Source: Xenophilus sp. Marseille-Q4582 (GTDB lineage Bacteria > Pseudomonadota > Gammaproteobacteria > Burkholderiales > Burkholderiaceae_C). From it: a DNA stretch of 64,000 nt. Position numbers and translations under genes: made by a program. The stretch covers positions 62,001 to 126,000 of the forward strand of contig NZ_CAKAKO010000003.1 in the NCBI RefSeq assembly GCF_916700565.1, given 5' to 3'. Shown one piece after another: positions 31,967-62,058 of the stretch (positions are counted from its first letter, which is position 1; each line of letters begins with the position of its first letter). The notes beneath the pieces are model-generated. The model made no database searches. It was not told the DNA's origin and saw only the letters and a program-made list of their open reading frames with translations.

Positions 31967-33307
31967 TTATGGCGGCATCCCGCCGAGTGTGCGGGCCGCC
32001 TGCTCAAGCCCGCCCAGGATGGCATCGCGGACACGCGGTGAGAAGTCCTGTGGCAATTCGGCTTGCGCTTCGGCAATGGCCGCTGGTGTACGAGCAAGAA
32101 GTTCTTCGACGATCGGCTCGGCGGTCGATGCGTAGCCAACTTTCTGCGCGGTGCTGTTGAAGTGCCTGCGCTGGATACCGTGCATCTCGTAGTGTCGGTT
32201 CTTGCCGAGCAGGGCCATGGCCAACTTGATCTCATACGGAGACCACTGGTTGGGGCCATCGCCCAACACCGGGTAGACCGACATCACGTCATACAGCGGG
32301 GTCAGCTGGAAACGACCGCGTGGCAGAAGCTGGATGCTGAAGTTCTTGGCATGGCCATCGGGCGCGCGTAGCAACCAGAACAGCACCTGCGCCGCCATCA
32401 GCGTCTTCATGTCGGCCTCGGTATTCACCGATTGCCGCAGCGTGCCGAACAGGGCCTTGAGCCCAGGACCGCCCTCGTTCTCGTACTTACGTAATGGCGA
32501 GCAGCCCTCGACCTGGCAAAAGTCTTCCTGTGGCAGACGCATGAGCCACTGCCCATTGGGTGCGACGCGCCGGTCGAAACGCTCCACCACCAGCACACGC
32601 TGTCGGCCGAAGGTCGCGATGCGGGCATCAGCCACGGGCAATCCGTAGGCTTTCAGCAGCCGCAAGCACAGCCATTCGTTGTCGACGGACGTGCTGAAGT
32701 CCGCCTGCCGCCCGCCCATCAGACCGAGCGGAAGCTTGAAGATGTGGCTCGTCGGCGTGGCGCCACGCGGCGCCAGCCATTGCCCGCCCCACCACAGGAA
32801 GGCGGTCTTCTCCTGCGCACCGGCCAGCGAGATGCGGAAGTCCGCATCCGGGTCTCGGCCCGCAGCGAAGGCCTGCGGCGAAACGGTTTCGATCAGGTGC
32901 CGCTCGATATCCTCCTCGGCCAGGGGCACGCCCTCGATTCGATCGAAGTCGGTGGGCACCTCCCCCTCATCCAGGATCTGGACGGCGCCCACGCAATCGC
33001 GCCCGATGGCCTTCAGTAAGTCAAACGGCTCGGTCGAACCCGTCCTGAAGCGCTCGGCCACGCGGCGGCGGATCGCGTCGCTGTCCGGTAGCAGGTTGTC
33101 GAAGTAGTTAGCGACCTTCTCGCCCTTGACCGGCAGGTTCTGCAGATTGAAAGGCAGCGACAAGGACAGCGGTCGGCCCATATCCGCAGCAAGCCAATCC
33201 GCGTCGTACTGCAGTTCCATCTCTCCGCGAGCGGGAATCGTCCATCGGCCGACGCGAACACCGTTGGTCCAGATGGACAGGCTGCGGCTGTGCGATCGAC
33301 GCCCCAT
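31967..33307 (-). CDS. hipA: HipA-family serine/threonine kinase toxin
   Basis: 446 residues, close to the 440 of E. coli HipA. The N-terminal beta-barrel domain (couple_hipA) is at residues 10-110. The Gly-rich loop is ISLAGAQEKTAFLW (about 159-172), the catalytic segment RAPDGHAKNFSI has Asp317 and Asn322, and LTPLYDV supplies the metal Asp340. Known HipA proteins phosphorylate glutamyl-tRNA synthetase and cause growth arrest and persistence. The start at 33,307 follows the hipB stop by one base. The gene appears intact and lies next to a defence-type gene, so a phage-defence or island-maintenance role is plausible. Confidence 0.92.
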   Translation of the reverse strand: MGRRSHSRSLSIWTNGVRVGRWTIPARGEMELQYDADWLAADMGRPLSLSLPFNLQNLPVKGEKVANYFDNLLPDSDAIRRRVAERFRTGSTEPFDLLKAIGRDCVGAVQILDEGEVPTDFDRIEGVPLAEEDIERHLIETVSPQAFAAGRDPDADFRISLAGAQEKTAFLWWGGQWLAPRGATPTSHIFKLPLGLMGGRQADFSTSVDNEWLCLRLLKAYGLPVADARIATFGRQRVLVVERFDRRVAPNGQWLMRLPQEDFCQVEGCSPLRKYENEGGPGLKALFGTLRQSVNTEADMKTLMAAQVLFWLLRAPDGHAKNFSIQLLPRGRFQLTPLYDVMSVYPVLGDGPNQWSPYEIKLAMALLGKNRHYEMHGIQRRHFNSTAQKVGYASTAEPIVEELLARTPAAIAEAQAELPQDFSPRVRDAILGGLEQAARTLGGMPP

Positions 33308-33308
33308 G

Positions 33309-33569
33309 TCACCAATCCGTGGGCGTCGTTGACACCGCAGCCTTGCCCCGGATCCCCACGGCCAACTCCAGGCCCAGCGCTGCGCACCATGCAAGGAGTT
33401 GCTCCACGCTCAGCTCGTGGGCGTTGAGTTCCAGATGAGAGACACGCGACTGGCTCAAGCCGATACGGGCAGCCAGTGCCGATTGGGTCAGCCCTTGCGC
33501 TTTGCGCGTGGCCTGCAGCATCGAGCCGAGTTGGCCTGTAGTGACCAGCGGATGTGACGTCGGCGGCAT
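33309..33569 (-). CDS. hipB: HipB-family antitoxin (XRE regulator)
   Basis: 86 residues with an XRE helix-turn-helix at about 13-66 (LGSMLQATRKAQGLTQSALAARIGLSQSRVSHLELNAHELSVEQLLAWCAALGLELAV). It neutralises HipA and represses the operon by binding palindromes upstream. The start at 33,569 (MPPTSHPL) matches HipB length; the longer frame to 33,641 would read through the operators. Gene order hipB then hipA with a one-base gap is standard for this toxin-antitoxin pair. Confidence 0.9.
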   Translation of the reverse strand: MPPTSHPLVTTGQLGSMLQATRKAQGLTQSALAARIGLSQSRVSHLELNAHELSVEQLLAWCAALGLELAVGIRGKAAVSTTPTDW

Positions 33570-33633: not shown

Positions 33634-33691
33634 AAATTCAACTACGTGGGCTCTGGCTGCGCCCCAGCGCCCGGTGTCAAGCTTCATCTAA

Positions 33692-35012
33692 CAGGCCGTT
33701 GAAAAAATGCTCATCGAACGCGCCAGGGTCGTGGATTTCGAAGAAACGGATCGCCCAAACTGGCCTGCGCAGCGATTGGAGCGGCCATTTCGGCCTGTTT
33801 GCAGGCCGTTTTGCCCGTTCCGGGCGCACGTATCCCATGGTTCACGCATGATGCGCGTCCCACCAGCCGCCCAGACTGCCCATGCGCACCAGGTTGTAGG
33901 TGGCAAAGCACAGCAGCGCCTGGCCCGCGAGCTTGGCCTGACCGATCAATTTGGTCTTGGCCAGACCACCCACTGTCTTGATCCAGCCAAAGGCCTCCTC
34001 GATGCGCTTGCGCACTTTGAGGCTGGTCTTGTAGCCCTCGTGGCGCCGGATGCGGCCATCGACCGCCGAGTGCTTGTCCTTGGCCGCCACGTGTGGCGTG
34101 ACTTTGAGCTTTCGGCAGCCCTTGATGAAGGCCTGGCTGTCGTAACCTTTGTCGGCCCCGACCGTGGCCCGCTTGTTCTTGTTTCCCCGGCGTTTGAGCA
34201 TCGCCAGCGCCGCCTCGCGCTCGGCGGTGCCACTGGCATGTGTGATCTCCACATCCACGATCAGCCCGTTGCGGTTCTCCATGAGGATGTGCCCCATGTG
34301 GCACAGGCGAGATTTGTCGCCCGCGCTCTTCTTGAACAGCCGGGCATCGGCATCGGTGGTGCTGGCGTGGGTGTCGTTGCAGCGCTCCTGCCCTTTGAAG
34401 TTCACCTCGGGGTTGCGTCCGGGTGGCGTGCCGCTGTCGTCGTCTTTGCGTTTGAAACTCTTGTGCGAGGCCCAGGCCTCAATCAGCGTGCCGTCCACGC
34501 TGAAGTGTTCGTCGCTGGCAAGCCGGCCCCACTGGGCGCTGAGCTTGACGCGCTCGAAGAAGGCGCGCGCCAGGTCTTCGTTGAAGAGGCGTTCGCGGTT
34601 GGCGCTGAAGGTGGAGTGGTCCCAGACCTTGTCTTCAATGTTCAGGCCCACGAACCAGCGGTACAGCAGGTTGTAGTTGACCGCCTCGACCAGCTGGCGT
34701 TCGCTGCGGATGGAGAACAGGATTTGCAGCAGCAAGGCCTTGAGCAGCATCTCCGGCGGCACCGAGGGGCGGCCACGGCGGGCGTACACCGCTTCGAACT
34801 CGCTGTTCATGCTCGACAGCAGCGCATCCACCACGGCGCGCAACTTGCGCAGCGGGTGTGCCGCTGGCACTCTTTCTTCAAGGCTGATGTAGCTAAACAT
34901 CGCCCCCTGGAAGTCTTGGTTGCCTCTCATCTTTCTTGTCGCAGTTGTTCCGGGATGGCTTCAGATCGTAGCGGCCGACGCGGACGCTCGCAGGGGATTT
35001 TTCAACGGCCTG
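33692..35012 (-). mobile_element. IS5-family element, 1,321 bp, copy 1
   Basis: The ends are CAGGCCGTTGAAAAA and its complement, flanked on both sides by the 4-bp duplication CTAA (33,688-33,691 and 35,013-35,016). Both features fit the IS5 group, which targets YTAR. It carries one full transposase. It lies between hipB and the start of the giant helicase gene without breaking either. An almost identical copy in the opposite orientation lies at 36,442-37,762. Confidence 0.93.
33842..34930 (-). CDS. IS5-family transposase (copy 1)
   Basis: 362 residues with an intact DDE core: the DUF772-type N-terminal region (ARRGRPSVPPEMLLKALLLQILFSIRSERQLVEAVNYNLLYRWFVGL), the first Asp in HFSVDGTLIEAWASHKSFK, the second in TVGADKGYDSQAFI, and the Glu in KRIEEAFGWIKTVGG. 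It differs from the copy at 36,524 by one residue (Ala for Thr in the KKS-GDK segment), the only difference noticed between the proteins. It is probably active. Confidence 0.93.
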   Translation of the reverse strand: MRGNQDFQGAMFSYISLEERVPAAHPLRKLRAVVDALLSSMNSEFEAVYARRGRPSVPPEMLLKALLLQILFSIRSERQLVEAVNYNLLYRWFVGLNIEDKVWDHSTFSANRERLFNEDLARAFFERVKLSAQWGRLASDEHFSVDGTLIEAWASHKSFKRKDDDSGTPPGRNPEVNFKGQERCNDTHASTTDADARLFKKSAGDKSRLCHMGHILMENRNGLIVDVEITHASGTAEREAALAMLKRRGNKNKRATVGADKGYDSQAFIKGCRKLKVTPHVAAKDKHSAVDGRIRRHEGYKTSLKVRKRIEEAFGWIKTVGGLAKTKLIGQAKLAGQALLCFATYNLVRMGSLGGWWDAHHA

Positions 35013-35132
35013 CTAAGCGGCTTAACGGCCAATTCGGGCGCTTCATTTCCCTGCCTTCTGTGGACTCACCGATTTCTGCTTGGGTTTTACCTGCCGAAAT
35101 TTCTGACAACTGGAGCTAATATCCTGCAAGGT

Positions 35133-35180: not shown

Positions 35181-36452
35181 ATGGACGAGACACCACCGGA
35201 AGGTTCGACCATCGCGGCCGAACTGAAAATCGACGTTACCCTGATCGCCAAACTGAACTTGGCGGATTTTCAGAATGCGGTCCCGCTGGTCCGCGATCTC
35301 TCCCTGATCAACGAGACCGATCAGACTCATGAGCAGGTCGAGTTGGTCCTGACTTCCGATCCGCCCTTTTTGAAGCCGCGCCGTTGGCGGATCGATGCGC
35401 TGGCGGCCCGTTCGCGCTATCCAATCCGCGACCTGGATCTGAACCTGGACGGCGGACTGCTGGCACGGCTGACCGAAGCCGAGACGGCCACGGTGTCGCT
35501 GGCATTGCGCACCGCAGGCGCGGATGCCTCCAGCCCTGCCCTGACGCAACGCGATGTCCATCTGGAGTTGCTGCCACGCAATCAATGGGGCGGTATCTCG
35601 CATCTACCCGACTTGGTCGCTGCGTTCGTCCAGCCCAACGACCCGGCGGTGGATCGGCTGCTCAAGCGCACAGCGGAGGTGCTGCGTCAGCACGATCGCA
35701 ACCCTGCCCTGGACGGCTATGCCGGCGGTGCCAAGCGTGCCTGGGAACTGGCCTCCGCCCTCTGGGGGGCCACGGCTGGCATGCAGTTGGACTATGCCTT
35801 GCCACCGGCCAGTTTCGAGCAGTCTGGCCAGAAGGTGCGCAGCCCCGGGCAGATCGAAAGCTCAGGCCTTGGAACCTGCTTCGACCTCGCGCTGCTGTTC
35901 TGCGCTGCACTCGAGCAAGCAGGATTGAACCCGCTGCTGGTCTTCACCGAAGGCCATGCCTTTGCTGGCGTCTGGCTTCAGCCTGAGGAATTCTCCACCA
36001 CCGTCGTCGACGACGTGACGGCCTTGCGCAAGCGCCTCAGGCTCAAGGAACTGGTTCTGTTCGAGACCACCCTGATCACGCAGCGCCCCACGGCCCCCTT
36101 CAGCTATGCCACCGCACGCGGCGCTCAGCAGGTGGACGAATCTCAGGATGCGGGATTCCGCTTGGCGGTGGACATTCGCCGGGCTCGGTTGCAGCGCATC
36201 AAGCCATTGGCCAGTGCGGAAGCGGCAGTTGCCACGGCGCCGGGCACTGAAGTGTCACCGTCCACGCCTGCCCTGCCAAAGTTCGAAGACGCGCCTGACC
36301 TTCCCGACAGCGCGCCAGCCAATGCGGAAGATGCCAGCCAGCTCGATCCCAAGGACCGGCTGCTTCGCTGGCAACGCAAACTGCTGGACCTTTCGCTTCG
36401 CAACAATCTGCTGAACTTCAAGGGCGGCAAGAAGGCGCTAACAGGCCGTTGA
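35181..36452 (+). pseudogene. Fragment 1 of the Hhe-like gene (N-terminal domains)
   Basis: 423 codons from the ATG at 35,181, which has AGGGG six bases upstream. It covers the beta-rich N-terminus, the transglutaminase-like GLGTCFDLALLFCAALEQAGL...FTEGHAFAGVWL segment and the first half of the DUF4011 motif. It then runs four codons into the IS and stops. A truncated protein of this part could still be made. Confidence 0.8.
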
Positions 36453-37762
36453 AAAATCCCCTGCGAGCGTCCGCGTCGGCCGCTACGATCTGAAGCCATC
36501 CCGGAACAACTGCGACAAGAAAGATGAGAGGCAACCAAGACTTCCAGGGGGCGATGTTTAGCTACATCAGCCTTGAAGAAAGAGTGCCAGCGGCACACCC
36601 GCTGCGCAAGTTGCGCGCCGTGGTGGATGCGCTGCTGTCGAGCATGAACAGCGAGTTCGAAGCGGTGTACGCCCGCCGTGGCCGCCCCTCGGTGCCGCCG
36701 GAGATGCTGCTCAAGGCCTTGCTGCTGCAAATCCTGTTCTCCATCCGCAGCGAACGCCAGCTGGTCGAGGCGGTCAACTACAACCTGCTGTACCGCTGGT
36801 TCGTGGGCCTGAACATTGAAGACAAGGTCTGGGACCACTCCACCTTCAGCGCCAACCGCGAACGCCTCTTCAACGAAGACCTGGCGCGCGCCTTCTTCGA
36901 GCGCGTCAAGCTCAGCGCCCAGTGGGGCCGGCTTGCCAGCGACGAACACTTCAGCGTGGACGGCACGCTGATTGAGGCCTGGGCCTCGCACAAGAGTTTC
37001 AAACGCAAAGACGACGACAGCGGCACGCCACCCGGACGCAACCCCGAGGTGAACTTCAAAGGGCAGGAGCGCTGCAACGACACCCACGCCAGCACCACCG
37101 ATGCCGATGCCCGGCTGTTCAAGAAGAGCACGGGCGACAAATCTCGCCTGTGCCACATGGGGCACATCCTCATGGAGAACCGCAACGGGCTGATCGTGGA
37201 TGTGGAGATCACACATGCCAGTGGCACCGCCGAGCGCGAGGCGGCGCTGGCGATGCTCAAACGCCGGGGAAACAAGAACAAGCGGGCCACGGTCGGGGCC
37301 GACAAAGGTTACGACAGCCAGGCCTTCATCAAGGGCTGCCGAAAGCTCAAAGTCACGCCACACGTGGCGGCCAAGGACAAGCACTCGGCGGTCGATGGCC
37401 GCATCCGGCGCCACGAGGGCTACAAGACCAGCCTCAAAGTGCGCAAGCGCATCGAGGAGGCCTTTGGCTGGATCAAGACAGTGGGTGGTCTGGCCAAGAC
37501 CAAATTGATCGGTCAGGCCAAGCTCGCGGGCCAGGCGCTGCTGTGCTTTGCCACCTACAACCTGGTGCGCATGGGCAGTCTGGGCGGCTGGTGGGACGCG
37601 CATCATGCGTGAACCATGGGATACGTGCGCCCGGAACGGGCAAAACGGCCTGCAAACAGGCCGAAATGGCCGCTCCAATCGCTGCGCAGGCCAGTTTGGG
37701 CGATCCGTTTCTTCGAAATCCACGACCCTGGCGCGTTCGATGAGCATTTTTTCAACGGCCTG
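36442..37762 (+). mobile_element. IS5-family element, 1,321 bp, copy 2
   Basis: Same ends and length as copy 1, in opposite orientation, with its own CTAA duplications at 36,438-36,441 and 37,763-37,766. It is inserted inside the DUF4011 motif of the Hhe-like gene. Reading frame is restored exactly when the element and one CTAA are removed, which shows this was a simple insertion. Confidence 0.95.
36524..37612 (+). CDS. IS5-family transposase (copy 2)
   Basis: 362 residues, identical to copy 1 apart from Thr for Ala in the KKS-GDK segment. All DDE motifs are intact. It reads in the same direction as the interrupted host gene. Near identity of the two copies shows recent spread of this IS in the genome. 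Confidence 0.93.
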   Translation: MRGNQDFQGAMFSYISLEERVPAAHPLRKLRAVVDALLSSMNSEFEAVYARRGRPSVPPEMLLKALLLQILFSIRSERQLVEAVNYNLLYRWFVGLNIEDKVWDHSTFSANRERLFNEDLARAFFERVKLSAQWGRLASDEHFSVDGTLIEAWASHKSFKRKDDDSGTPPGRNPEVNFKGQERCNDTHASTTDADARLFKKSTGDKSRLCHMGHILMENRNGLIVDVEITHASGTAEREAALAMLKRRGNKNKRATVGADKGYDSQAFIKGCRKLKVTPHVAAKDKHSAVDGRIRRHEGYKTSLKVRKRIEEAFGWIKTVGGLAKTKLIGQAKLAGQALLCFATYNLVRMGSLGGWWDAHHA

Positions 37763-37766
37763 CTAA

Positions 37767-39424
37767 AGCTGGAGGCGCCAGACCCCGGCGCGCTGGAAGA
37801 CCTGTTGGCCAGCGGCCAGCCTCTGAAGCTGCGACCGCGCCCGGACCTGATGGACGGAGCCGATCCGCGCGATCAGGCCATCTACGAAGCCCGCGAACGT
37901 GAAAACGTGCGCCGCGCGCATGCGTTCGAAGCCCTGCAGAAACGCGAGGTTTTCGTCGGTATTCCCGAAACCGAACTCGACGCACGGCTGACCGAGCTGT
38001 TCCGCAGCGCCCGCACAACTTTGCAGGAAGGCGGTGCCAACACGCTGTATCTCGCTCTGGGTTTCCTGTCCTGGACCCGCGAAGACCGAGACGGTCAGCG
38101 CTACCGCGCTCCTCTGATCCTGGTGCCGGTCAGCCTGCAGCGCAAGAGCGCCCGCTCGGGCTTCACGCTCAGCTTGCATGACGACGAGCCCCGCTTCAAT
38201 CCGACCCTGATCGAGATGCTGCGCCAGGACTTCGAGCTGAGTCTGGGTACTCTCGAAGGCGAACTGCCGCGAGACGAGACCGGCCTGGACGTCGCTGCGG
38301 TCTGGAAGGCCGTCGGCCACGCCATCAAGGACATCAAGGGCTGGGAAGTGACCGAGGACGTGGTGTTGTCCATGTTCTCGTTTGCCAAGTATCTGATGTG
38401 GAAAGACCTTGCCGAGCGCAGCGAGCAGTTGCGCGAGAACCCGGTCGTGCGCCACCTGCTGGACACTCCGCGCGATGCCTATCCACCAGGCGCTCCGTTC
38501 CCGCAGGTGCGCGAACTGGACCAGCGCTTCGACCCCAAGCAGGTGTTCTGCCCCTTGCCGGCGGATTCCTCGCAGTTGTCGGCCGTGCTGGCCGCCTCGC
38601 AGGGCAAGGACTTCGTCCTGATCGGTCCACCTGGGACCGGCAAGAGCCAGACCATCGCCAACCTGATCGCCCAATCCCTGGCGCAGGGCCGGCGCGTGCT
38701 CTTCGTGTCCGAAAAGATTGCGGCGCTGGACGTCGTCTACCGGCGCCTGCGCGAAATCGGCCTGGGTGAGTTCTGCCTGGAGCTGCACTCGAGCAAGGCC
38801 CGCAAGCTCGACGTGCTGGCCCAGCTGCAGTCCGCCTGGTCCAGCAACGGCCAAACCGACGCCGAGCAGTGGCGAGCAGAAGCCGACAATCTCAAACGTC
38901 TGCGCGATGCGCTGAACATCTATGTCGAACGCTTGCATCAGCGGCGCCGCAACGGTCTGAGCTTGTTCGACGCGATCGGCACTGTCAGCGCGGGACACGA
39001 TATCTCGACGCTTGAAGTGGCCTGGCCCACCGCCGATCAACACGATCATGCGGGCATCGAGCAGTTGCGCCATGCCGTGGACCGGCTGGAAGTCAATGCG
39101 CAAGCCATCGGCCATGCCACACTGGCACAACACCCCTTGGCCCTCATCGGCCAGGGAGACTGGTCACCCACTTGGCAGCAACAACTGATCACCGCGGCGC
39201 GCGAAGTCCTTCCCGCCGCCCAGGCGACGATCGAATCCGCAGAGGCATTTGTCCAGGCCATCGGGCTGCCTTCGCCCGCGTTGACGCCCGACACCTGCGA
39301 AGCACTGGTGATCCTGGCCCAACGCCTGCCGTCGGCAGCAGGGCACGATTGGCGCTTCGTCCTGCGCCCCGACGCACGCACTCTAAGAGCGGCTAACACA
39401 ACCCTGTCATCGTCAAGCGCCTGA
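37767..39424 (+). pseudogene. Fragment 2 of the Hhe-like gene (DUF4011 remainder and helicase Walker A)
   Basis: This fragment continues the frame after IS copy 2 (KLEAPDPGALEDLLASG). It has REVFVGIPETELDARL, a region typical of DUF4011 proteins, and the helicase Walker A segment FVLIGPPGTGKSQTIANLI at about 38,610-38,665. FVSEKIAALDVVYRRL follows. It is cut at 39,386 by a second, different IS and reads 12 codons into it before stopping. It has no good start of its own. Confidence 0.8.
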
Positions 39425-40259
39425 TCTGCGTTTGACGGTGCATGGGTCGAAACAAGAACAAGGAAATCAGCACGGCGCTGTTCAAGAAGATCGAGCCGCT
39501 GCTGCCGGTGTTCGTGCCCTCAGCCAAGGGCGGGCGCCCGCGGGTCAGTGACGAGATGGCGCTCAACGGCATCCTGTTCGTGCTGCGTACGGGCATCCCC
39601 TGGGAGGAACTGCCGCAGGAGCTGGGCTTTGGCAGCGGCATGACATGTTGGCGGCGTCTGCGCCAAGGGCAGGAAGCCGGGGTGTGGCACCGCCTGCATC
39701 TGCTACTGCTTGCTGAACTGCACAGCGCCGGCAGGCTCGATTTCAGCCGGGCCAGCCTGGACGCTGCCAGCGTCCCCAGCCCCCGGGGGGCTCGCACACG
39801 GGCCCCAACCCGACCGACAGGGGCAAACTCGGCAGCAAGCGCCACCTCATCACGGACCGCCAGGGCATCCCGCTGATGTTCTGCGTCACCGGTGCTAACC
39901 GGCACGACTCGGTGGTCTTCGAGCAACTGGTCGATGCCTTGCCCGATGTGCGAGGAAAGCGCGGCAGGCCGCGCCGCTGGCCGGGCAAGCTGCATGCGGA
40001 CAAGGGCTACGACTTTGCGCGCTGCCGGGCGCACCTCAGGCGCCGGGGCATCGTCGATCGCATCGCCCGCCGGGGCATTGAACGCAACGATCGATTGGGC
40101 CGCCATCGTTGGGTCGTGGAACGTACGCATGCCTGGCTGGCCGCCTTCGGCAAGCTGCGTGTGCGTTTCGAGCGAAGCGTTCATACCCACGTGGCCTTGC
40201 TATCCCTGGCATGCAGCGTCATTTGCGTGCGGTCCTTGAGGTGGTTGTGTTAGCCGCTC
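39387..40259 (+). mobile_element. IS5-family element of the IS427/IS1031 type, 873 bp
   Basis: The ends are GAGCGGCTAACACAACC and its near complement, flanked by the 3-bp duplication TAA (39,384-39,386 and 40,260-40,262), fitting the TNA target rule of this subgroup. It sits inside the Hhe-like gene between the helicase Walker A and DEAS motifs. Excision with one TAA restores the reading frame. Confidence 0.92.
39442..40253 (+). CDS. IS427-type transposase, two frames joined by -1 frameshift
   Basis: The first frame (39,442-39,876) gives the N-terminal domain (MGRNKNKEISTALFKKIEPLLP...GIPWEELPQELGFGSGMTCWRRL) and the first DDE Asp in LDAASV. The second frame, open from just after the shift to 40,253, gives HADKGYDFARCRAHL (second Asp) and RHRWVVERTHAWLAAFGKLRVRFE (Glu). 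The junction lies at a run of six G near 39,790, where a -1 slip joins ...SPRG to GSHTGPNPTDRG. Programmed frameshifting is the normal expression mode of this subgroup. Confidence 0.85.
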
Positions 40260-40262
40260 TAA

Positions 40263-43200
40263 GCCAACGCCTGCAGGAAGGCGCAGCACTGGTGCGCCGC
40301 CATGTCGAACTGAATGCGCAGCTCTCTGAACCATGGCCCGCTTCCGTCGTGACCGCCTGCACCGACAGCCTCGCAGCGCTCACCGAACACCGGCAGATCC
40401 ACGCACAGCTCGGCGAGCCTTGGACACCTCGCACGGTTGTGCAATTGAACCAGGGACTCGGTCTGCTGGCCCAGATCGCGCAACACCACGCAGCGCTGTC
40501 GGCCCCTTATGGCGAATCGATTGAACAGCTCGACGTCGCCGAGTTGCAGCGGAGATGGGAACAAGCCGAGCAGGCGTTCTGGCCCAAGTCCTGGCTGGGC
40601 AAACGCAAGGTTGCGGCGCAACTGTCTGGCGCAATCAAGGGAGGATCGCAGCCTGACGTCAGCAACGATCTACAGCATTGGAATGCCATCCGAGCCTTGC
40701 GCCAACAGGTTCAAGCCATTACTCCCGCGCAGGAATGTGCGTCCGCCTGGGCAGGACTGGATACCAAAGAGGACAAGGTGCGCACGGCCCTGCGCTGGCA
40801 GATCGCCCTGGCCGCTGTGCGCGAAGGCCGGGAGTGGGAAGACGATGGCTTCGACGCCATCGCGGACGGCCAATGCGGCGACCCCCTGCAGGCCGATTTG
40901 CAGAGGGCGCGCCGACTGCGCCAGTTGGACCAGGACATTGCCGCCCATGCCTCGCTGGAAACGACGACCGACGGCCTATGGGCCGGCCACGCCACGCAAG
41001 TCGACCGTCTGCGCGCCGCCTTGGATTTCTTGAGCGATCGGCGAAGGCATCTCCAACAAGGTCCCCTGGATGCGACCCACACCTTGGTCGAGGAAGGTGC
41101 TTGCGGCCCCACGCTCGCGCACGATCACCAGACGCTGCGCCAGCGAGCCGAAACCGAGCAAGCGCTGGCCGCCCTGGACGACTTGCGCGAGTCCACCGCC
41201 GGCCTGTGGAAAGGACTGGCCACCCCTCTGGATGAGCTCGCACAGGCCTGCAAGCTTCGCGAGGATCTGGCTGCCGTGCTGGCGCGTCTGGCCACCACAC
41301 CCGAGCAGATTTCCGCCTGCAAGGCACCACTGCATGCCTTGTTGGGCGATGCCAATGCATTGCTGGAGCCAGGTGGCCGCATCGCGGTGGCCGGCGCTCG
41401 ATACGTGGAGAAACGGGGACAACTGCTTCCCCGGCAGGAGACGCTCGCGGCAATCGGGTGCCTTGCCGAGGCCGCCCAGACGCAGTGGCACTCCCTGTCA
41501 CTCGACGGGCTCATCGAGCAAAGCCAGTCCATCGTGCGCGCAGAACACAGCCTGCGCAGCTGGTGCGCCTGGCGCCAGGCACGCAGCGAAGCACTTGCAC
41601 TGGGGTTGACCACGCTGGTGCAGGGTATCGAACAAGGCCATGTCGGAGCAGGCCAGGCCCGCCGAACGTTCGAAACCAACTACGCACGCTGGTGGCTCAA
41701 CGCCGTGGTAGATCACGAGCCGGTCATCCGCGGGTTCGTCAGCGCCGAACACGAACAGCGCATCCGCGACTTCCGGGAGCTCGACGAACGCTTCACCGCC
41801 CTGACCCGGGACTGGCTGCGTGCCCGCATGTGCGGCGACCTACCCTCGCAGGACAACGTCAGCCGCAACTCCGAATGGGGCGTGTTGCGGCACGAGATTG
41901 GCAAGAAGCGTGCGCATCTGCCCTTGCGGGAGTTGATGGCCCAGATTCCCGAGGCACTGACCAGGCTTACGCCCTGCTTGCTGATGAGCCCGCTGTCCAT
42001 CGCGCAGTACCTCCAGGCGGGGACCAACGCTTTCGACCTGGTGATCTTCGACGAAGCCTCACAGATCCCGGTCTGGGACGCGATCGGCGCCATCGCCCGC
42101 GGCCGTCAGGTCGTGATGGTCGGCGATCCCAAACAGTTGCCGCCCACCTCGTTCTTCGACCGCGCCGAGTCCGGTCTTGACGACGAGGATGTCGAGGCTG
42201 ACCTGGAGAGCATCCTCGACGAGTGCATCGGCGCCAACCTGCCGACCCGCGACCTGAACTGGCACTACCGCAGCCGCCATGAAAGCTTGATCGCGTTCTC
42301 CAACCACGCCTATTACAAGGGTGAACTGGTCACCTTCCCCTCCCCTGTCACCAACGACCGCGCGGTCAGCCTGCAGATGATCTCGGGCGCCTACCAGAAG
42401 GGCGGTACGCGGACCAATCCTGCCGAAGCCAAGGCGCTCGTTGCCGATGTCGTGGCCCGCCTGACAGCGCCAGGTTTCCGAGAAAGCGGGCTCACGATCG
42501 GGGTGGTCACGTTCAACGCCGAACAGCAAAAACTGATCGAGGACTTGCTCGACGAAGCCCGACGAAAAGACCCGCGACTGGAGCCCTACTTCGCCGAGAG
42601 CGAACTGGAGCCACTGTTCGTCAAGAACCTGGAAAGCGTGCAAGGCGACGAGCGCGATCTCATCTACTTCTCCATCACCTATGGCCCGGACCCCACAGGC
42701 CAACTGGCCATGAACTTCGGCCCGCTCAACCGCCAAGGCGGCGAGCGCCGACTCAATGTGGCCATCACCCGCGCACGGCATGAGCTGCGCGTGTTCGCCA
42801 GTTTCCGCGCCGAGCAGATGGACTTGGCGCGCACCCAAGCCATCGGCGTACGCGATCTCAAGCACTTCCTGGAGTTCGCCGAACGCGGCGCTCGCGCGCT
42901 GGCGGAAGCAAGCAAAGGCAGCCTTGGCGGCTTCGACAGTCCCTTTGAACAGGCCGTAGCCACTGCCCTTGCCCAGCGTGGCTGGCAAGTCCAGCCGCAG
43001 ATTGGAGCCTCTTCGTTCCGCGTCGACCTCGGCATCGTCGATCCCGACGCACCTGGCCGTTACCTGGCCGGCGTGGAATGCGACGGCGCCACCTACCACC
43101 GCAGCGCCACTGCACGCGATCGCGACAAGCTGCGCGAGCAGGTCCTGCGCGGCCTAGGATGGGAAATCGTGCGGGTCTGGTCCACCGACTGGTGGATCGA

Positions 43201-44023
43201 TCGCGCTGGCACGCTCGATAGGCTGGATGCCCGGCTGCAAGCCGTGCTCAAAGTCCAGCGCGAGCGGCGTATAGAAGAGGCAGAGCGCGAAGCCGAGGCC
43301 AAGCGCTTGGCGCAAGCGGCCATCGCGCAAGCCATGGCGTCGGTGACGAAGCCAGACGAAGAAACGGCGGCCCCAATCCAGGATGCGGACCCGATCGCAC
43401 CTGAAACCCCGGCGACGGTTCCACCGCAGCAAATCGAAGAAGTCTTTGCTCGTCAGGCCTCTGCAGCGCCAGCCCATGCTGATACAGCCGAAACAGCGCC
43501 ATCGGAGGTCTCGCTCTACCGGGTCACGAACCCCGCTGAAGCTGTCGATGGCGCCAATCTCGATCGATTCTTCGACGGGGATTACAACGACACCTTGTCG
43601 GCCATGATCGCTCACGTCATCGATCATGAAGGCCCCGTGCTCGACGCCCTACTGGCCCGCCGCATTGCCCGCGCCCACGGCTGGCTACGTACCGGCGGGC
43701 GCATCCGAGAGCGCGTTTTCCAAATCGCGCGCGCCCGCTATCGGACGACCGATGAAGAGGTCGGCACGTTCTATTGGCCCGAGCATCTCGATCCTGCGGC
43801 AGAGCCTCCCTTCCGCGGTCCCGCCGACGAGGACAGCGTGCGGGCAGCTGATGAGATCAGTCTCACAGAACTGGCTTCGCTGGCTCGCGCCGTCATCGCA
43901 CAGGGCAGTCAAGGCGAAGAGATCTATCAAGCAATGGCGCGCAGGCTCGGGCTCCAACAGCTACGCGCAGCCAGCCGAGCACGTTTTGAGAATGCAGTGA
44001 GCTCTGTGCGTCCAGAGCCATGA
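40263..44023 (+). pseudogene. Fragment 3 of the Hhe-like gene (helicase motifs, nuclease, DUF3320)
   Basis: About 1,253 codons beginning SQRLQEGAALVRRH after the second IS. A long helical section leads to LVIFDEASQIPVWDA (motif II, about 42,040-42,085), MVGDPKQLPPTSFF, YRSRHESLIAFSN, ESVQGDERDLIYFSITYG and LNVAITRARHEL. The nuclease FDSPFEQAV...RVDLGIVDP...GVECDGATYHR...GWEIVRVWSTDWW follows at about 42,935-43,200. An Ala/Glu-rich linker leads to DUF3320 (RFFDGDYNDTLSAMIAHVIDHEGPVLDALLARRIARAHG). The frame is open through the IS end, so a shorter protein with nuclease and DUF3320 is possible. Confidence 0.85.
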
Positions 44024-44324
44024 CTCTGAAGAGTTCGCCGACAGAACATGGAGGGATGAACCGACTCTTGCCGGGCGATGAACGATCTGAACGCGTCCTT
44101 CCGTCACCCAGCCGATCGGGCCGGTCAGTGGCGACTCGAAGGCGTCGACATGCGAGGTATGCGTTTTCCTGACGTAGCGTGCGGCGTGGATTTCGTCGCT
44201 GAACACCACTAGGTGTGAAGCTCCAATAGGTTGTATCCGGTGTTCATCCGGATTGAGTTTGAGAGACTGGAAGTCGCCAAACACCCAATCCACCCAGGGA
44301 GCCCAACCGGATGAACACCCATAA
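44024..44324. other. Intergenic region downstream of the Hhe-like gene
   Basis: No recognised gene in 301 bases. It contains a perfect 13-bp inverted repeat, GGTGTTCATCCGG at 44,239-44,251 and CCGGATGAACACC at 44,307-44,319, spanning 81 bases and ending five bases before the IS at 44,325. This may be a terminator-like fold or the remnant end of an older element. A 110-codon minus-strand frame through here has no family resemblance. Confidence 0.45.
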
Positions 44325-45198
44325 GAGCTACTAACAAAACCATGTCATCATCGAGCGCTTGATTGGTGTTTGATGAGGCATGGGTCGAAACAGGAATAGA
44401 GAAATCAGCGCCGCGCTGTTCAAGAAGGTTGCCCCGCTGTTGCCGGTAGTCGTTGCCTCGGCCAAAGGCGGTCGCCCACGAGTGAGCGACGAGATGGCCC
44501 TGAACGGCATTCTGTTCGTGCTGCGCACCGGCATTCCCTGGGAGGAGTTGCCCCAGGAACTGGGCTTTGGCAGTGGCATGACCTGTTGGCGGCGTCTGCG
44601 TGATTGGCAGGCTGCGGGCGTGTGGCATCGCCTGCATCTGTTGTTGCTCGGTGAATTGCGCGGCGCCGGCAAACTGGACTTCAGCCGTGCGAGCATGGAC
44701 GCGGCCAGTGTGGCCAGCCCCCGGGGGGCCACTACACCGGCCCCAACCCCACGGACAGGGGCAAACTCGGCAGCAAGCGCCACATCATCACGGACCGCCA
44801 AGGCATCCCACTGATCTTCTGCGTCACGGGCGCCAACCGGCATGACTCGGTGGTTTTCGAGCAACTGGTCGACGCGTTGCCAGCGGTACGTGGCTGTCGC
44901 GGTCGGCCCAGGCGCTGGCCGCACAAACTGCATGCCGACAAGGGCTATGACTATGCTCGCTGCCGCTTTCACCTGCGCAAGCTGGGGATCACCGCGCGTA
45001 TTGCCCGGCGCGTCATCGAACGCAACGACCGGCTCGGGCGTCATCGCTGGGTGGTCGAGCGCACGCACGCCTGGCTGGCCGCCTTCGGCAAGCTGCGTAC
45101 TCGTTTCGAGCGCCGCATCGACATTCATGTCGCGTTGCTCTCGCTGGCCTGCTGCGTTATCTGCATTCGCCATCTCCCACCGTTTTGTTAGCCGCTCT
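44325..45198 (+). mobile_element. IS5-family element of the IS427/IS1031 type, 874 bp, second isoform
   Basis: The ends are GAGCTACTAACAAAAC (left) and the complement of GAGCGGCTAACAAAAC (right). The transposase resembles the one at 39,442 but differs at many residues. The flanking triplets are TAA on the left and TCA on the right: both obey the TNA rule but they do not match. That suggests the two ends come from separate insertions joined by recombination or deletion. Its right end supplies the stop codon of the neighbouring XRE-cupin gene. Confidence 0.88.
44380..45191 (+). CDS. IS427-type transposase, second isoform, -1 frameshift
   Basis: Frame 1 (44,380-44,814) begins MGRNRNREISAALFKKVAPLLP and holds the first DDE Asp in MDAASV. 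Frame 2, open to 45,191, holds HADKGYDYARCRFHL and RHRWVVERTHAWLAAFGKLRTRFE. The same run of six G near 44,728 is the slip site. Both halves look undamaged. Confidence 0.82.
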
Positions 45199-45889
45199 CA
45201 ATCTGGACGGACTCTTCCGGAGATGCGCCATACGCGCGAAGAACCACGATCATGATCTTGGTCCCAGCTTGTGTGCCTGCAAGATAGGCATGCGGCGTCG
45301 AACTGTCGAAAAGTGCGCTGGCGCCGGCGCGCATGACGCGTGGCGGCATGCCTTCCATGTGCAAGACCAGCGTGCCCGAGAGCACATAGCAGAACTCTTC
45401 ACCCTTGTGGCCGTTGAGCCCCCCGACTTCCTCCAGGCTGCGTGCGTGCACGTCGGCAATGAGGGGCAGCAGATGCGCCGCATCGTGCGCATGCAGCACG
45501 CGAGCCTTCGACTGGCGCACGTTCGTCTCCTGCCCCTCCCCTGCGTCGGTAAAGCTGGTCAGCCGCTCACCCGGCGCCAGGTGGTGCCGGCCGACGAGAT
45601 CCGTCCAATCGATGTCCAGACCCATCATGACCCTGGACAGCACGCCGAAGGTGGGAGACATCTTGTTGTTCTCGATGCGGGACAGAGAGGCGGCCGGCAC
45701 GCCGCTGAGTTCCCCGAGCTGCGCGAGCGATAGGCCCTTGCCCTCGCGGATGACGCGCAACCTTCGCCCGAGTTCCTCAGTCATCGACTGATCGGTCTGC
45801 GCACGCCGCCAGGTGGCAGATGGTGTGGGTGCCTTGCCCGCTGCACCGTGGGAGCGACGTTCTTGGGAACGTGCAGTAAGGGTTTTCAT
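45188..45889 (-). CDS. XRE-family regulator with C-terminal cupin domain
   Basis: 233 residues from the ATG at 45,889. Helix-turn-helix at about residues 40-90 (RLRVIREGKGLSLAQLGELSGVPAASLSRIENNKMSPTFGVLSRV); cupin sensor at about 150-228 (SLEEVGGLNGHKGEEFCYVLSGTLVLHMEG, then GASALFDSSTPHAYL). This is the PuuR-like layout, in which the cupin binds a metabolite. It is divergent from the gamma-glutamyltransferase-like gene, with three palindromes between them, so it is the likely regulator of that cluster and of itself. The last residues and the TAA stop come from the IS end, so the natural C-terminus may be slightly altered. Confidence 0.88.
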   Translation of the reverse strand: MKTLTARSQERRSHGAAGKAPTPSATWRRAQTDQSMTEELGRRLRVIREGKGLSLAQLGELSGVPAASLSRIENNKMSPTFGVLSRVMMGLDIDWTDLVGRHHLAPGERLTSFTDAGEGQETNVRQSKARVLHAHDAAHLLPLIADVHARSLEEVGGLNGHKGEEFCYVLSGTLVLHMEGMPPRVMRAGASALFDSSTPHAYLAGTQAGTKIMIVVLRAYGASPEESVQIESG

Positions 45890-45917
45890 GGTTCGAGCCC
45901 AGAAAAAAGCGCTTGAT

Positions 45918-45970
45918 TTGCGGATCCGCAATACGTAAATTACGGATCCGTAATCGTTACGGATCTGCAA
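45918..45970. promoter_or_regulatory. Three 14-bp palindromic operators of the XRE-cupin regulator
   Basis: TTGCGGATCCGCAA (45,918-45,931), TTACGGATCCGTAA (45,940-45,953) and TTACGGATCTGCAA (45,957-45,970) share the pattern TTRCGGATCYGYAA. The first two are perfect palindromes. Start-to-start spacings are 22 and 17 bases. They fill the 96-base gap between the divergent regulator and first enzyme gene and would overlap both promoters. The last box ends only 15 bases before the ATG at 45,986. Confidence 0.85.
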
Positions 45971-45985
45971 ATTGTACTGCGCGGC

Positions 45986-47833
45986 ATGCCCATGAGTTCG
46001 ACCTTCACCGCCCGTCCCGAGCTGATCGGTACTTTGGGGGCCTGTTCATCCACGCACTGGCTGGCATCGCAAACCGCCATGAGCGTGCTCGAGCGCGGCG
46101 GCAACGCCTTCGATGCAGCGGTTGCCGGAGGCTTCGTGCTGCAGGTCGTCGAGCCTCATCTCAACGGTCCTGCAGGCGAGGTGCCGATCCTGTCCTGGGA
46201 CGAGAAGGCGCGTTCGATCGAAGCGCTGCGAGGCCAGGGCTGTGCGCCGCAGGACGCAACAGCCGCCGCCTTCCGCCGGCTGGGGCTGGGCCTCGTGCCG
46301 GGCATCGGTCTGCTCGCCGCCACCGTACCGGCGGCGTTCGCGACATGGCTCACGCTGTTGCGCGATCACGGCAGCTGGCGGCTGGCCGATGTGCTCGCGC
46401 CGGCCATCGGCTATGCGCGGGACGGCTTTCCGGTGTCACGCCGCTTGTGCGAGGCGGTCCTCGGCGTGCGGGCGCTCTTCCTGTCCGAGTGGCACACCTC
46501 GGCTGAGGTCTGGCTGGAAGGGTCCAAGGTGCCAGCCCCTGGCACGCTGTGGCGGCTCCCCGCGCTGGCGAATACCTATGCGCGGATCGTGGCGCAAGCC
46601 GAGCGCGAGGGTCAGGACCGGGTGAGCGAGATCGATGCGGCGCTGCGCGTATGGCGGGACGGATTCGTGGCCGAAGAGGTCGACGCGTTCTGCCGCGTGC
46701 CAGTGGGCGACAGCAGTGGCCAGGCGCATGCGGGTTTCCTGCGGCGCGAGGACATGGCCAACTGGCGGCCGGCGGCCGAAAAGCCGCTCATGGGCCGGTT
46801 CGGGCGGTACGACGTGGCCAAGTGCGGCTTCTGGAGCCAGGGGCCGCTCTTTCTGCAGACACTGGCCATGCTTCAGGGCGCCGGGCTCGACGCGTACGCA
46901 CACGACAGCGCGGACTTCGTGCACAGGCTGGCCGAAGCGACCAAGCTGGCGCTGGCCGACCGGCTCGCCTGGTACGGCAGCGCACCCGCCAGTGACGCCT
47001 GCGTGCAAGCACACCTGCTATCCACTGAATACGCCCGCGAGCGCTGGAAAAGGGTGAACCTGTTGCAGGCGTCACGCGCGCTCGACGCCGGCGCACCCCT
47101 GGGTCGTTCGCCGCGCCTGCCCGACCTGACGGTCGGCGCGCGCGAGCTTCGCGCCGCCGACGCCCGCTTCGGCATCGGCGAGCCCACCTTCCAGAACCTG
47201 CCACCCGTTGCGCAATGGTCGGAGCGGGAACTGTTCGTCGGGGACACCTGCCACATCGACGTGATCGACCGGCACGGCAACATGGTGGCTGCCACGCCAT
47301 CGGGCGGCTGGCTCTCATCGAGTCCGGCAATCCCCGCGCTCGGCTTCGCGCTCGGCACGCGCCTGCAGATGACGTGGCTGGAAGACGGGCTGCCGGGCTC
47401 ATTGACGCCGGGCGTCGCGCCCTGCACCACGCTGTCTCCCTCGCTGGCGCTTCGCGACGGGGAGCCCTACATGGTCTTCGGGACACCGGGCGGCGATCAG
47501 CAGGACCAATGGCAGCTCGGCTTCTTCCTGCGTCATGCACTACACGGCATGTCCATGCAGGAGGCCATTGAGGCGCCATCGTTCCATGTGAGGCACTACG
47601 CCGCCTCGTTCTGGCCGCGCCCGGTCACGCTGAATCGCCTGAAGGCGGAATCCCGATTTCCACCCGAGACGCTGGCGCTGCTACGCGAGCGCGGCCATGA
47701 CCTGGAGGTGGGCGAACCATGGTCGGAGGGCCGGCTGTCCGCCTGCAGCCGCACCCGCGATAGCCACGGCCGCCTCGTACTTCGCGCCGCGGCCAATCCG
47801 CGCGGCATGCAGGGCTATGCAGTGGCCCGCTGA
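45986..47833 (+). CDS. Gamma-glutamyltransferase-family enzyme
   Basis: 615 residues, Ntn-hydrolase of the GGT family. The N-terminal half has ASQTAMSVLERGGNAFDAAVAGGFVLQVVEPHLNGPAGE. The self-cleavage site is at GD-Thr421-CHIDVIDRHGNMVAATPSGG, with Thr421 as nucleophile; the second Thr common in GGTs is Cys here. LTPGVAPCTTLSPSLALRDGEPYMVFGTPGGDQQ follows, where the usual glycine pair is kept. No signal peptide is visible, so unlike classic GGT it is probably cytoplasmic. It heads a cluster with a monooxygenase, VOC protein, hydrolase and ABC transporter. A role as an amide hydrolase on a catabolic substrate is inferred. Confidence 0.87.
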   Translation: MPMSSTFTARPELIGTLGACSSTHWLASQTAMSVLERGGNAFDAAVAGGFVLQVVEPHLNGPAGEVPILSWDEKARSIEALRGQGCAPQDATAAAFRRLGLGLVPGIGLLAATVPAAFATWLTLLRDHGSWRLADVLAPAIGYARDGFPVSRRLCEAVLGVRALFLSEWHTSAEVWLEGSKVPAPGTLWRLPALANTYARIVAQAEREGQDRVSEIDAALRVWRDGFVAEEVDAFCRVPVGDSSGQAHAGFLRREDMANWRPAAEKPLMGRFGRYDVAKCGFWSQGPLFLQTLAMLQGAGLDAYAHDSADFVHRLAEATKLALADRLAWYGSAPASDACVQAHLLSTEYARERWKRVNLLQASRALDAGAPLGRSPRLPDLTVGARELRAADARFGIGEPTFQNLPPVAQWSERELFVGDTCHIDVIDRHGNMVAATPSGGWLSSSPAIPALGFALGTRLQMTWLEDGLPGSLTPGVAPCTTLSPSLALRDGEPYMVFGTPGGDQQDQWQLGFFLRHALHGMSMQEAIEAPSFHVRHYAASFWPRPVTLNRLKAESRFPPETLALLRERGHDLEVGEPWSEGRLSACSRTRDSHGRLVLRAAANPRGMQGYAVAR

Positions 47834-47859
47834 ACCCATCTTCGACAAGGAGCATTCTC

Positions 47860-49503
47860 TTGAGCAATTCTGAAAACGACGCCTCCGGCCACACCGTCCA
47901 GGTGCTGATCGTCGGAGGCGGTCCCGTCGGCTTGGCGATGGCACTGCTGCTGGACCGCTTCGGCATTTCCTTCGCGCTGATCGAACGCTCCCCCGGCGTC
48001 ACTGACCATCCCAAGGCTCGCGGCTGTGACATCCGTTCGATGGAACTGTTCCGGCAATGGGGCATCGAGGAGAAGGTCAAGGCACGCGGGCTGCCGCCCG
48101 GCTCCGACACGTTCGCCTTCGTGGACACTGTCTCCGGCCTCGAGTACGGGCGCACCACCGTCGAGACCAACCTGGGCCAGTCGCCCGCGTGGCGTTGCAT
48201 CGTGTCGCAGGATGTCGTGGAGGAGGAACTCTTCGCGGTGGCGAGCCAGTCCCGCCACGGTCGCATCCTGTACGAGACGGAGTTCCTCGAATACGAGGCA
48301 CACGAGCGTGGCGTCACTGTCAGCACGCGCAGCCTGAAAACGGGCGAGCGCATCCACTGGTCCGCCGACTACCTGGTCGGTGCCGATGGTGCCGGCAGCA
48401 GTGTGCGCCGGAACTGCGGAATCGACATGCGCGGACCGTCCACGCTGGCCGTGATGGCCAACGAATACTGGAAGGCCGATCTGTCGCGCGTGCCCCGCAT
48501 CATGGCTACCGCCGGCTACCGCATCCGGCCCCAGGCACCGGGCGAATCGGTCTGGACCGTACTGAACACCAACGGCAAGGACCGCTGGCTCAGCGCCGGA
48601 GCGGTCGGCACCGAGAGCGACGAACGCCCCGGCCCGCGCACTGACGAGGAAGTGGTCGCGCTGGCGCGGCGGCAGACCGGTATACCCGATCTCGAGGTCA
48701 AGGTGATCAGCCGCTCCATCTGGCGTTTGAGCCGCCAGGTGGCGGCCCGGTTCCGCGCGGGCCGCGTGTTCCTGGTCGGCGATGCAGCACATCGGTTTCC
48801 GCCCAACGGCGGCTTCGGCATGAACTCCGGCATTCAGGACGCGCACAACCTGGCCTGGAAGCTCAAGCTGGTGCTCGGCGGACAGGCTGGCCCGGCGCTG
48901 CTCGATACCTACGACATGGAACGGCGCCCTGTCGCGGAGTCGAACGCGGACTTCAGCCTGGGCAACCAGCGCCGCTTCACCCAGACCGACGCGGCACTGC
49001 GCTCGGGCAACAAGGACCAGATCGAATTCTGGATCCGCGACACCGACAACCATATCCACAGCACGGGACAATCGCTGGGCTTTGCCTACGAGGAAGGCGC
49101 GATCGTCCAGGACGGCACGGTACGCCAGCCGCTTCTGCCGCGCTGGTACCTGCCTTCCGATCGGCCGGGCAGCCGCTTTCCGCATCTCTGGCTGGACCTG
49201 GCCCGGACGCAATCGACGCTGGACTGGTTCGACCGCGATTTCGTGCTGGTTGCCGGACCGAAGGCCGACGGCTGGCTCGAGGCCGGACGCCGCGTGGCCG
49301 CAAAGTCGAGCGTGAACATCCAGCTTCGGCAGATGGACTGCCTCGATTCGCATCGCGGCTTCGGCATGGGCCTGCGCGGCGCCGTTCTGGTGCGCCCCGA
49401 CGGACACGTAGCCTGGCGCATGCCGTGGCTGCCGGCAGACCCCGCCAAAGAGTTGGCGAATGCGCTGGGCAAGGTGCTCGCGCGAGACGTCGTCGCGAAC
49501 TGA
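47860..49503 (+). CDS. FAD-dependent monooxygenase (aromatic hydroxylase type)
   Basis: 547 residues from a TTG at 47,860, chosen because AAGGAG lies seven bases upstream and the encoded N-terminus reaches the FAD fold at the normal distance. Motifs: VLIVGGGPVGLAMALLLDRFG (GxGxxG, about residues 16-36), YLVGADGAGSSVRR (DG motif, about 168-181), and VFLVGDAAHRFPPNGGFGMNSGIQDAHNLAWKL (GD motif, about 304-336). These define the FAD_binding_3 group, such as MhpA and PheA, which hydroxylate aromatic rings with NAD(P)H and O2. It is followed after 20 bases by the VOC gene. Confidence 0.9.
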   Translation: MSNSENDASGHTVQVLIVGGGPVGLAMALLLDRFGISFALIERSPGVTDHPKARGCDIRSMELFRQWGIEEKVKARGLPPGSDTFAFVDTVSGLEYGRTTVETNLGQSPAWRCIVSQDVVEEELFAVASQSRHGRILYETEFLEYEAHERGVTVSTRSLKTGERIHWSADYLVGADGAGSSVRRNCGIDMRGPSTLAVMANEYWKADLSRVPRIMATAGYRIRPQAPGESVWTVLNTNGKDRWLSAGAVGTESDERPGPRTDEEVVALARRQTGIPDLEVKVISRSIWRLSRQVAARFRAGRVFLVGDAAHRFPPNGGFGMNSGIQDAHNLAWKLKLVLGGQAGPALLDTYDMERRPVAESNADFSLGNQRRFTQTDAALRSGNKDQIEFWIRDTDNHIHSTGQSLGFAYEEGAIVQDGTVRQPLLPRWYLPSDRPGSRFPHLWLDLARTQSTLDWFDRDFVLVAGPKADGWLEAGRRVAAKSSVNIQLRQMDCLDSHRGFGMGLRGAVLVRPDGHVAWRMPWLPADPAKELANALGKVLARDVVAN

Positions 49504-49523
49504 GCAACGAAAGGAGTTGACCC

Positions 49524-49934
49524 ATGCAAGTCTCTGGGCTGAACCACTACACGCTGCGGTGCACGCCGGACGAACTGCGGCTGCTGCACGACTTCTATGT
49601 CGGCTGCCTGCAACTGCATGCTGGCGATCGACCCACGATGCCGGCGCCGGGATACTGGCTCTACAGCGGCGAGCGTCCCATCGTGCATCTGTATGCATCG
49701 CTGACTGGCAGCGAGGCGGGCGCCACGGCGGCGCTGGACCACATCTCGTTCAGCACGCATGGCCTGGAAGCGACCCGTGCACACCTGAAGGCCAAGGGCA
49801 TCGCCTTCGACGAGGCACCGGTGCCGGGCTGGCCCATCCACCAGATCTTCGTTCGCGATCCGCTCGGGCTCAAGATCGAACTCACGTTCGACCTCGACAA
49901 GGAAGGCGCCCCGGGCCATGACCAGTCTCATTGA
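49524..49934 (+). CDS. VOC-family (glyoxalase/dioxygenase-like) protein
   Basis: 136 residues, a single vicinal-oxygen-chelate module. Candidate metal ligands are His8 (LNHYTL), His73 (LDHISF) and Glu119 (KIELTF), the normal positions for a VOC metal site. DPLGLKIEL is the family end motif. GAAAGGAG stands just before the start. Such small VOC proteins can be isomerases, hydrolases or extradiol-type dioxygenases. Following a hydroxylase and preceding a hydrolase, a ring-cleavage or rearrangement step is possible. Its 3' end overlaps the next gene by 17 bases. Confidence 0.85.
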   Translation: MQVSGLNHYTLRCTPDELRLLHDFYVGCLQLHAGDRPTMPAPGYWLYSGERPIVHLYASLTGSEAGATAALDHISFSTHGLEATRAHLKAKGIAFDEAPVPGWPIHQIFVRDPLGLKIELTFDLDKEGAPGHDQSH

Positions 49935-50721: not shown

Positions 50722-50723
50722 TC

Positions 50724-52411: not shown

Positions 52412-52460
52412 GATCGTTCCCCGCACCCGTGTTCCTCCTACTTAAGAAAGGCGATTCATC

Positions 52461-62049: not shown

Positions 62050-62058
62050 GGCGGAGCT

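What the first reader, a model, noticed from the sequence alone, without database searches (positions are those of the whole stretch)
35181..44023. A giant Hhe-like anti-phage helicase-nuclease gene, split by two IS elements but fully reconstructable
Removing two IS elements with one target duplication each joins three segments into a 6,642-base frame, exactly divisible by three and free of stops. The rebuilt 2,213-residue protein has transglutaminase-like, DUF4011, SF1 helicase, Vsr/PD-(D/E)XK-like and DUF3320 parts. That layout matches the DUF4011-helicase-Vsr defence type known as Hhe. Two independent hits in one defence gene suggest it was costly or no longer selected. Precise excision would restore it.
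Basis: partly seen in the sequence, partly recalled or inferred. Interest (0 to 1): 0.85.

Follow-up and report, generated by a model that had tools for sequence, protein, structure and literature searches.

The report
Phage-defence gene broken by two transposons

Summary
Three colinear pieces of one gene lie at 35181-44023, separated by an IS5-family element (36442-37762, CTAA duplication) and a smaller one (39387-40259, TAA duplication). Each piece is open, their lengths sum to 6,642 bases, and relatives run through both junctions unbroken (14 of 15 compared as DNA). One correction: the family is not Hhe. Each piece fits NCBIfam "anti-phage protein ProA" (NF058533) far better (451, 702, 1249 bits, consecutive model stretches) than Hhe (none, 259, 598). 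In 76 of 79 related loci holding all three pieces they share one open frame. No partner gene was found conserved beside it. "Costly or no longer selected" is not supported: dN/dS of the pieces lies within the range among 13 unbroken relatives, so the breakage looks recent, and the genome holds at least 37 full copies of the first element. Four IS copies within 10.6 kb is, however, denser than chance. Unbroken, the protein is probably a stand-alone Upf1-like helicase fused to a Vsr-like nuclease that attacks phage DNA (inferred); here no piece holds a whole motor. Ordinary decay of a member of a known family; interest low.

The parts
35181..36441 (+). piece 1 of the gene: ATG start, N-terminal transglutaminase-like region and first residues of DUF4011 (includes the CTAA copy)
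   Evidence: NF058533 positions 1-386, 451 bits; 84-92% identical to 13 close relatives; Cys233 and His259 invariant in 32 aligned sequences
36442..37762 (+). IS element 1, IS5 family (ISDisp1-like), one transposase ORF 36524-37612; CTAA at 36438-36441 and 37763-37766
   Evidence: NCBIfam transpos_IS5_4 315 bits, cut-off 140; 37 full-length hits in the genome, this copy included (40 of 223 candidates scored); ends and duplication; 89% identical to two plasmid copies annotated ISDisp1 family
37767..39386 (+). piece 2: most of DUF4011 and the Walker A half of the SF1 helicase (includes the TAA copy)
   Evidence: NF058533 positions 385-926, 702 bits; DUF4011 146 bits; GxxxxGK[ST] in 78 of 78 related loci with a piece-2 match
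39387..40259 (+). IS element 2, IS5 family, transposase in two overlapping ORFs (39442-39876, 39876-40253); TAA at 39384-39386 and 40260-40262
   Evidence: DUF4096 in the first and DDE_Tnp_1 in the second ORF; first ORF transpos_IS5_3 85 bits, below its cut-off of 110, second ORF not scanned in NCBIfam; 18 hits in the genome: itself, one more at about 100%, 15 at 79-80%, one short at 71%
40263..44023 (+). piece 3: long linker, Walker B and C-terminal half of the helicase, MTES_1575/Vsr-like nuclease, DUF3320, stop
   Evidence: NF058533 positions 860-1902, 1249 bits; MTES_1575 121 bits, DUF3320 70, AAA_12 58, AAA_11 38 bits; D59 E60, R292 R299 R301, and E401 D403 G404 (alignment numbering) invariant in 31 sequences, window included
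33689..35015 (-). further copy of IS element 1, ending 165 bases before the ATG; similarity to the upstream DNA of one relative (L008) begins at 35017
44322..45164 (+). element related to IS element 2 (80% identical over 843 bases) just downstream of the gene
   Evidence: G000:C3:106322-107164

Best explanation
This is a recently broken copy of a stand-alone anti-phage gene of the ProA family (NF058533). SHOWN: homology of all three pieces to one family in order, one-frame relatives mostly in Proteobacteria, conserved helicase and nuclease residues in the pieces, IS ends and target duplications, no relaxed constraint. INFERRED: the unbroken protein is an ATP-driven SF1 (Upf1-like) helicase or translocase that engages phage DNA and cuts it with its C-terminal Vsr-like PD-(D/E)XK nuclease; DUF3320 helps bind DNA, and the N-terminal transglutaminase-like region (conserved Cys and His) acts as a sensor, a protease or a scaffold. 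In this genome the Walker A half (piece 2) and the Walker B half (piece 3) are separated by an element with stops in the gene frame, so the full-length protein is most likely not made and the defence is off. The cause is most likely the genome's IS load hitting an accessory island near guaA.
For: Family and order of pieces. Unbroken relatives: 76 of 79 loci with all three pieces in one open frame (81 loci looked at, 2 lack pieces at contig ends), 14 of 15 as DNA, a 2,213-codon open frame scoring 2308 bits in the same taxonomic family (G034). Nearest solved helicases: SMUBP-2, SEN1, DNA2, UPF1. Recent breakage: dN/dS of the window against 13 relatives 0.079-0.130, 0.064-0.102, 0.097-0.182 for pieces 1-3, against medians 0.095, 0.082, 0.135 and ranges 0.060-0.210, 0.048-0.131, 0.077-0.196 among the 13. 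IS load: 38 hits for element 1, 37 of them full-length; 18 for element 2. Stops in the gene frame inside both elements. No second copy found in this genome (1 match, all 3 candidates scored; only this locus, 15 of 25 candidates scored). No conserved partner found: commonest neighbour cluster in 12 of 73 loci (ORFs of 90 aa or more).
Against: The anti-phage role rests on a family name; no paper on ProA was seen in the searches made (one search listed 20 of 2,341 papers) and nothing was tested here. Pieces 2 and 3 could still be made from starts inside the IS elements; the nuclease domain is whole in piece 3. The stretch around the gene holds more IS copies than random placement gives, which leaves room for selection.
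Confidence: 0.85

Rival explanations
1. The gene was knocked out because the defence was harmful or blocked the uptake of useful DNA, and cells with the IS insertions were selected.
For: IS insertion into cas genes, and into other host defence systems, is published (PMC10359306, abstract and section headings). Four IS starts within 10.6 kb occur in 0.9% of random placements. A same-genus genome keeps only a 3' remnant of the gene (L094/L101).
Against: No relaxed or unusual change in the pieces; with 55 IS hits about 1.7 targets of this size would be hit twice or more by chance genome-wide; IS pairs are clustered genome-wide too (11 pairs within 9 kb against 4.6 expected, 3 of the 11 at this locus).
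Confidence: 0.15
2. It is a member of Hhe.
For: Pieces 2 and 3 match the Hhe models (259 and 598 bits in NCBIfam; 159 and 442 in PADLOC).
Against: No match of piece 1 to Hhe at E 0.01; for the same pieces ProA scores 702 and 1249, PDC-S37 394 and 859; the NCBIfam Hhe cut-off is 2000 bits.
Confidence: 0.04
3. The pieces are still used: piece 2, and piece 3 with a whole nuclease, are expressed from starts inside the IS elements as separate proteins.
For: Pieces 2 and 3 each belong to an ORF with a possible start inside the IS element before it (37616, 40109).
Against: The helicase motor is split between them; 76 of 79 related loci keep all three pieces in one frame; no expression data.
Confidence: 0.05

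Closest known systems
ProA, NCBIfam NF058533 'anti-phage protein ProA' (PADLOC candidate PDC-S37)
   Same: All three pieces match in order, model positions 1-386, 385-926, 860-1902
   Different: Broken by two IS elements; no single piece passes the 1500-bit cut-off alone
Hhe (NF042953, PDLC02194)
   Same: DUF4011 and helicase-nuclease stretches match; helicase of the SF1 Upf1 group (PMC10925250, passages)
   Different: Much lower scores, no match of piece 1
MTES_1575 architecture of the 2013 HEPN survey (PMC3710099, two passages)
   Same: Transglutaminase, SF1 helicase, Vsr nuclease, wHTH overlapping DUF3320
   Different: MTES_1575 also carries a HEPN domain; no HEPN match among Pfam hits of our pieces at E 0.01
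IS insertions into defence genes (PMC10359306, abstract and section headings)
   Same: IS transposition inactivates an immune system
   Different: There mainly cas genes with IS1 and IS10; here a helicase-nuclease gene and IS5-family elements

Membership tests
ProA (NF058533) | match above the 1500-bit cut-off | tested here: inconclusive
   Pieces score 451, 702, 1249 apart, none above; searches count the locus as above the cut-off (1945 bits for pieces 2 and 3 taken as neighbours in one frame, stops between them read through)
ProA (NF058533) | order of model positions across the pieces | tested here: met
   1-386, 385-926, 860-1902
ProA (NF058533) | helicase and nuclease residues present | tested here: met
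   Walker A pattern in piece 2 and in 78 of 78 related loci; DE, E-x-D-G and arginine columns invariant in 31 sequences, window included; motif names recalled
ProA (NF058533) | anti-phage activity | not testable with these tools
   no experiment; name from NCBIfam only
Hhe (NF042953) | match above 2000 bits, better than to other families | tested here: not met
   none, 259, 598 bits for pieces 1-3; ProA higher for each
IS5 family (element 1) | transposase, inverted repeats, 4-bp YTAR-like duplication | tested here: met
   the YTAR rule is recalled
IS5 family (element 2) | transposase in two frames, inverted repeats, short duplication | tested here: met
   NCBIfam IS5_3 match of the first ORF is below its cut-off; IS427-like placement is recalled

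The most novel reading that the evidence does not exclude
The repeated IS hits in and around this gene are not chance: the helicase-nuclease attacked incoming mobile DNA that the host needed (catabolic-looking genes lie beside it), and IS insertion was selected as an off-switch, with the same gene also decayed in a same-genus genome.
Probability: 0.12. Interest if true: 0.5.

Novelty: new member of a known kind. Interest (0 to 1): 0.2.

Why it matters
It is a clean case of IS elements breaking an accessory phage-defence gene, apparently recently, with unbroken relatives at hand for comparison. It also shows that a DUF4011-helicase-Vsr gene can be misfiled as Hhe when it fits ProA better.

Tried and rejected
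Hhe as the family: rejected on scores. Relaxed selection: dN/dS of the pieces lies within the range among 13 relatives; the window has 0, 4 and 7 private residues at otherwise invariant columns in pieces 1-3, not more than the highest of the others. A partner gene: none found, commonest neighbour cluster 12 of 73 loci (ORFs under 90 aa not covered). A second copy in the genome: none found (in some only 6 and 15 of 25 candidates were scored). Mobile carriage: piece 2 has no near DNA match among plasmids; piece 3 has partial protein matches in 3 phage records (at most 42% of the query, 43% identity) and matches in 328 plasmid records at E <= 1e-50, of which 2 cover at least 80% (best: Comamonas antarctica, 77% identity over 96%). 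Transglutaminase by solved structures: no match (only Nup54 at E 0.22). An att-like repeat of the 3' end of guaA: short hits only (14, 19 and 24 bases). Papers: DUF4011 is in 3 papers, one of them opened for passages (PMC10250203: a large DUF4011 gene flanks a core defence hotspot of Pseudomonas aeruginosa; not compared here); PDC-S37 in none; ProA as a defence protein in none seen (one search listed only 20 of 2,341); DUF3320 or MTES_1575 in 4, one opened for passages.

Rows dropped: one 101-base IS hit was left out (55 of 56 hits used). In one search, 81 loci were tested (79, L081 and L082; L001 and L083-L100 were not); L065 and L066 lack pieces at contig ends; L043, L051 and L064 are not in one frame. 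The 13 relatives were picked for 77-94% identity and one open frame; L062 (74-83%) was left out. Alignments A1 and A2 used 31 and 30 chosen loci besides the window.

Full report
WHAT IS THERE. The window is part of contig C3 of a 5.54 Mb genome in 13 contigs. At 35181-44023 lie three open stretches of one strand separated by two IS elements. Element 1 is 36442-37762 with a CTAA duplication, element 2 is 39387-40259 with a TAA duplication; the pieces add up to 6642 bases, and each is free of internal stops in the phase that one frame would impose. The gene frame meets stops inside both elements (first at 36450 in element 1; 39422, 39641, 39896 and 40079 in element 2).

FAMILY. The best NCBIfam family of every piece is "anti-phage protein ProA" (NF058533): piece 1 covers model positions 1-386 (451 bits), piece 2 385-926 (702 bits), piece 3 860-1902 (1249 bits). 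Hhe (NF042953) gets nothing for piece 1, 259 bits for piece 2 and 598 for piece 3, against a cut-off of 2000. PADLOC prefers PDC-S37 (394 and 859 bits for pieces 2 and 3) to Hhe (159 and 442). No single piece passes the ProA cut-off of 1500 bits; the genome search counts the locus as above it by taking pieces 2 and 3 together (1945 bits). A relative in the same taxonomic family (G034) scores 2308 bits in one open frame of 2213 codons.

RELATIVES. A scan of named genomes with piece 3 found 122 relatives; the best 80 were kept, as 79 loci. Of 81 loci tested (these plus L081 and L082), 79 hold all three pieces and 76 of the 79 have them in one open frame. The 13 closest, 77-94% identical, come from Xanthomonas, Pigmentiphaga, Bordetella, Achromobacter, Brachymonas, Castellaniella, Acidovorax, Vandammella and Endobacter; Endobacter is an alphaproteobacterium, which points to horizontal transfer (inference, no tree built). 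As DNA, 14 of 15 loci run through both junctions. Of the 15 genomes of the genus, 5 have some match and only the window's own is counted above the cut-off; one (G010) keeps a 3' remnant with an internal stop, and the matches in G002, G007 and G008 are partial and distant. Of 299 genomes drawn from the taxonomic family, 23, the own one included, match piece 3 at E <= 1e-100.

DOMAINS AND MECHANISM. Piece 2 holds Walker A, piece 3 the Walker B residues and the rest of the helicase, the MTES_1575 (Vsr-like) nuclease and DUF3320. The nearest solved sequences are the helicases SMUBP-2, SEN1, DNA2 and UPF1, in line with the placing of Hhe and the Mokosh helicases in the SF1 Upf1 group (PMC10925250, passages). 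Transglutaminase, SF1 helicase, Vsr nuclease and wHTH in one protein were described for MTES_1575 in 2013 (PMC3710099, passages). The transglutaminase-like reading of piece 1 rests on weak Pfam matches in some relatives and on an invariant Cys and His in 32 sequences. From this I infer a single-protein system that moves along or unwinds phage DNA and cuts it; no conserved partner was found. Shown: homology and conserved residues. Inferred: substrate, trigger, role of the N-terminal region.

WHY IT IS BROKEN. Element 1 has 37 full-length hits in the genome, this copy included, 34 of them listed at 100% identity; element 2 has one other copy at about 100%. In both of more than 220 candidates were scored, so these are lower bounds. 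With 55 hits, 0.066 are expected for a target of this size and about 1.7 such targets genome-wide would be hit twice or more. Four IS starts within 10.6 kb is rarer (0.9% of random placements); IS pairs are also clustered genome-wide (11 within 9 kb against 4.6 expected, 3 of the 11 at this locus). A copy of element 1 also ends 165 bases before the ATG, two bases before the point (35017) where similarity to the upstream DNA of one relative begins. dN/dS shows no relaxation, so the breakage looks recent; this says nothing firm about cost. IS inactivation of defence genes is published (PMC10359306, abstract and section headings).

SETTING. Beyond the gene lie a regulator, gamma-glutamyltranspeptidase, an FAD monooxygenase, transporter genes, a transposase and a short integrase, then guaA and guaB. 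DNA like the window's guaA also lies near the gene in 4 of 15 compared loci (L008, L009, L012, L048; flanks of differing length), which suggests a shared island site (inference).

VERDICT. Observation confirmed, family corrected from Hhe to ProA, selection claim not supported. A recently broken member of a known family; interest 0.2.

Noticed in passing
57943-63983: A short integrase (arm and central domains matched, no catalytic domain) near guaA and guaB; DNA like guaA lies near the same defence gene in 4 of 15 compared loci, suggesting a common island site.
   Followed up: partly
31967-33394: A HipA-like gene just upstream of the IS copy that precedes the defence gene.
   Followed up: no
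45188-53558: Regulator, gamma-glutamyltranspeptidase, FAD monooxygenase, glyoxalase-like, hydrolase, ABC permease and NMT1-type binding protein in a row, a possible catabolic cluster.
   Followed up: no
L101 (G010) 7976-8927: A same-genus genome keeps only a 3' remnant of the gene, 79% identical in DNA, with an internal stop.
   Followed up: partly
G000 C1:1084641-1087172: A full copy of IS element 1 is followed directly, in the same direction, by a copy lacking its first 119 bases.
   Followed up: no
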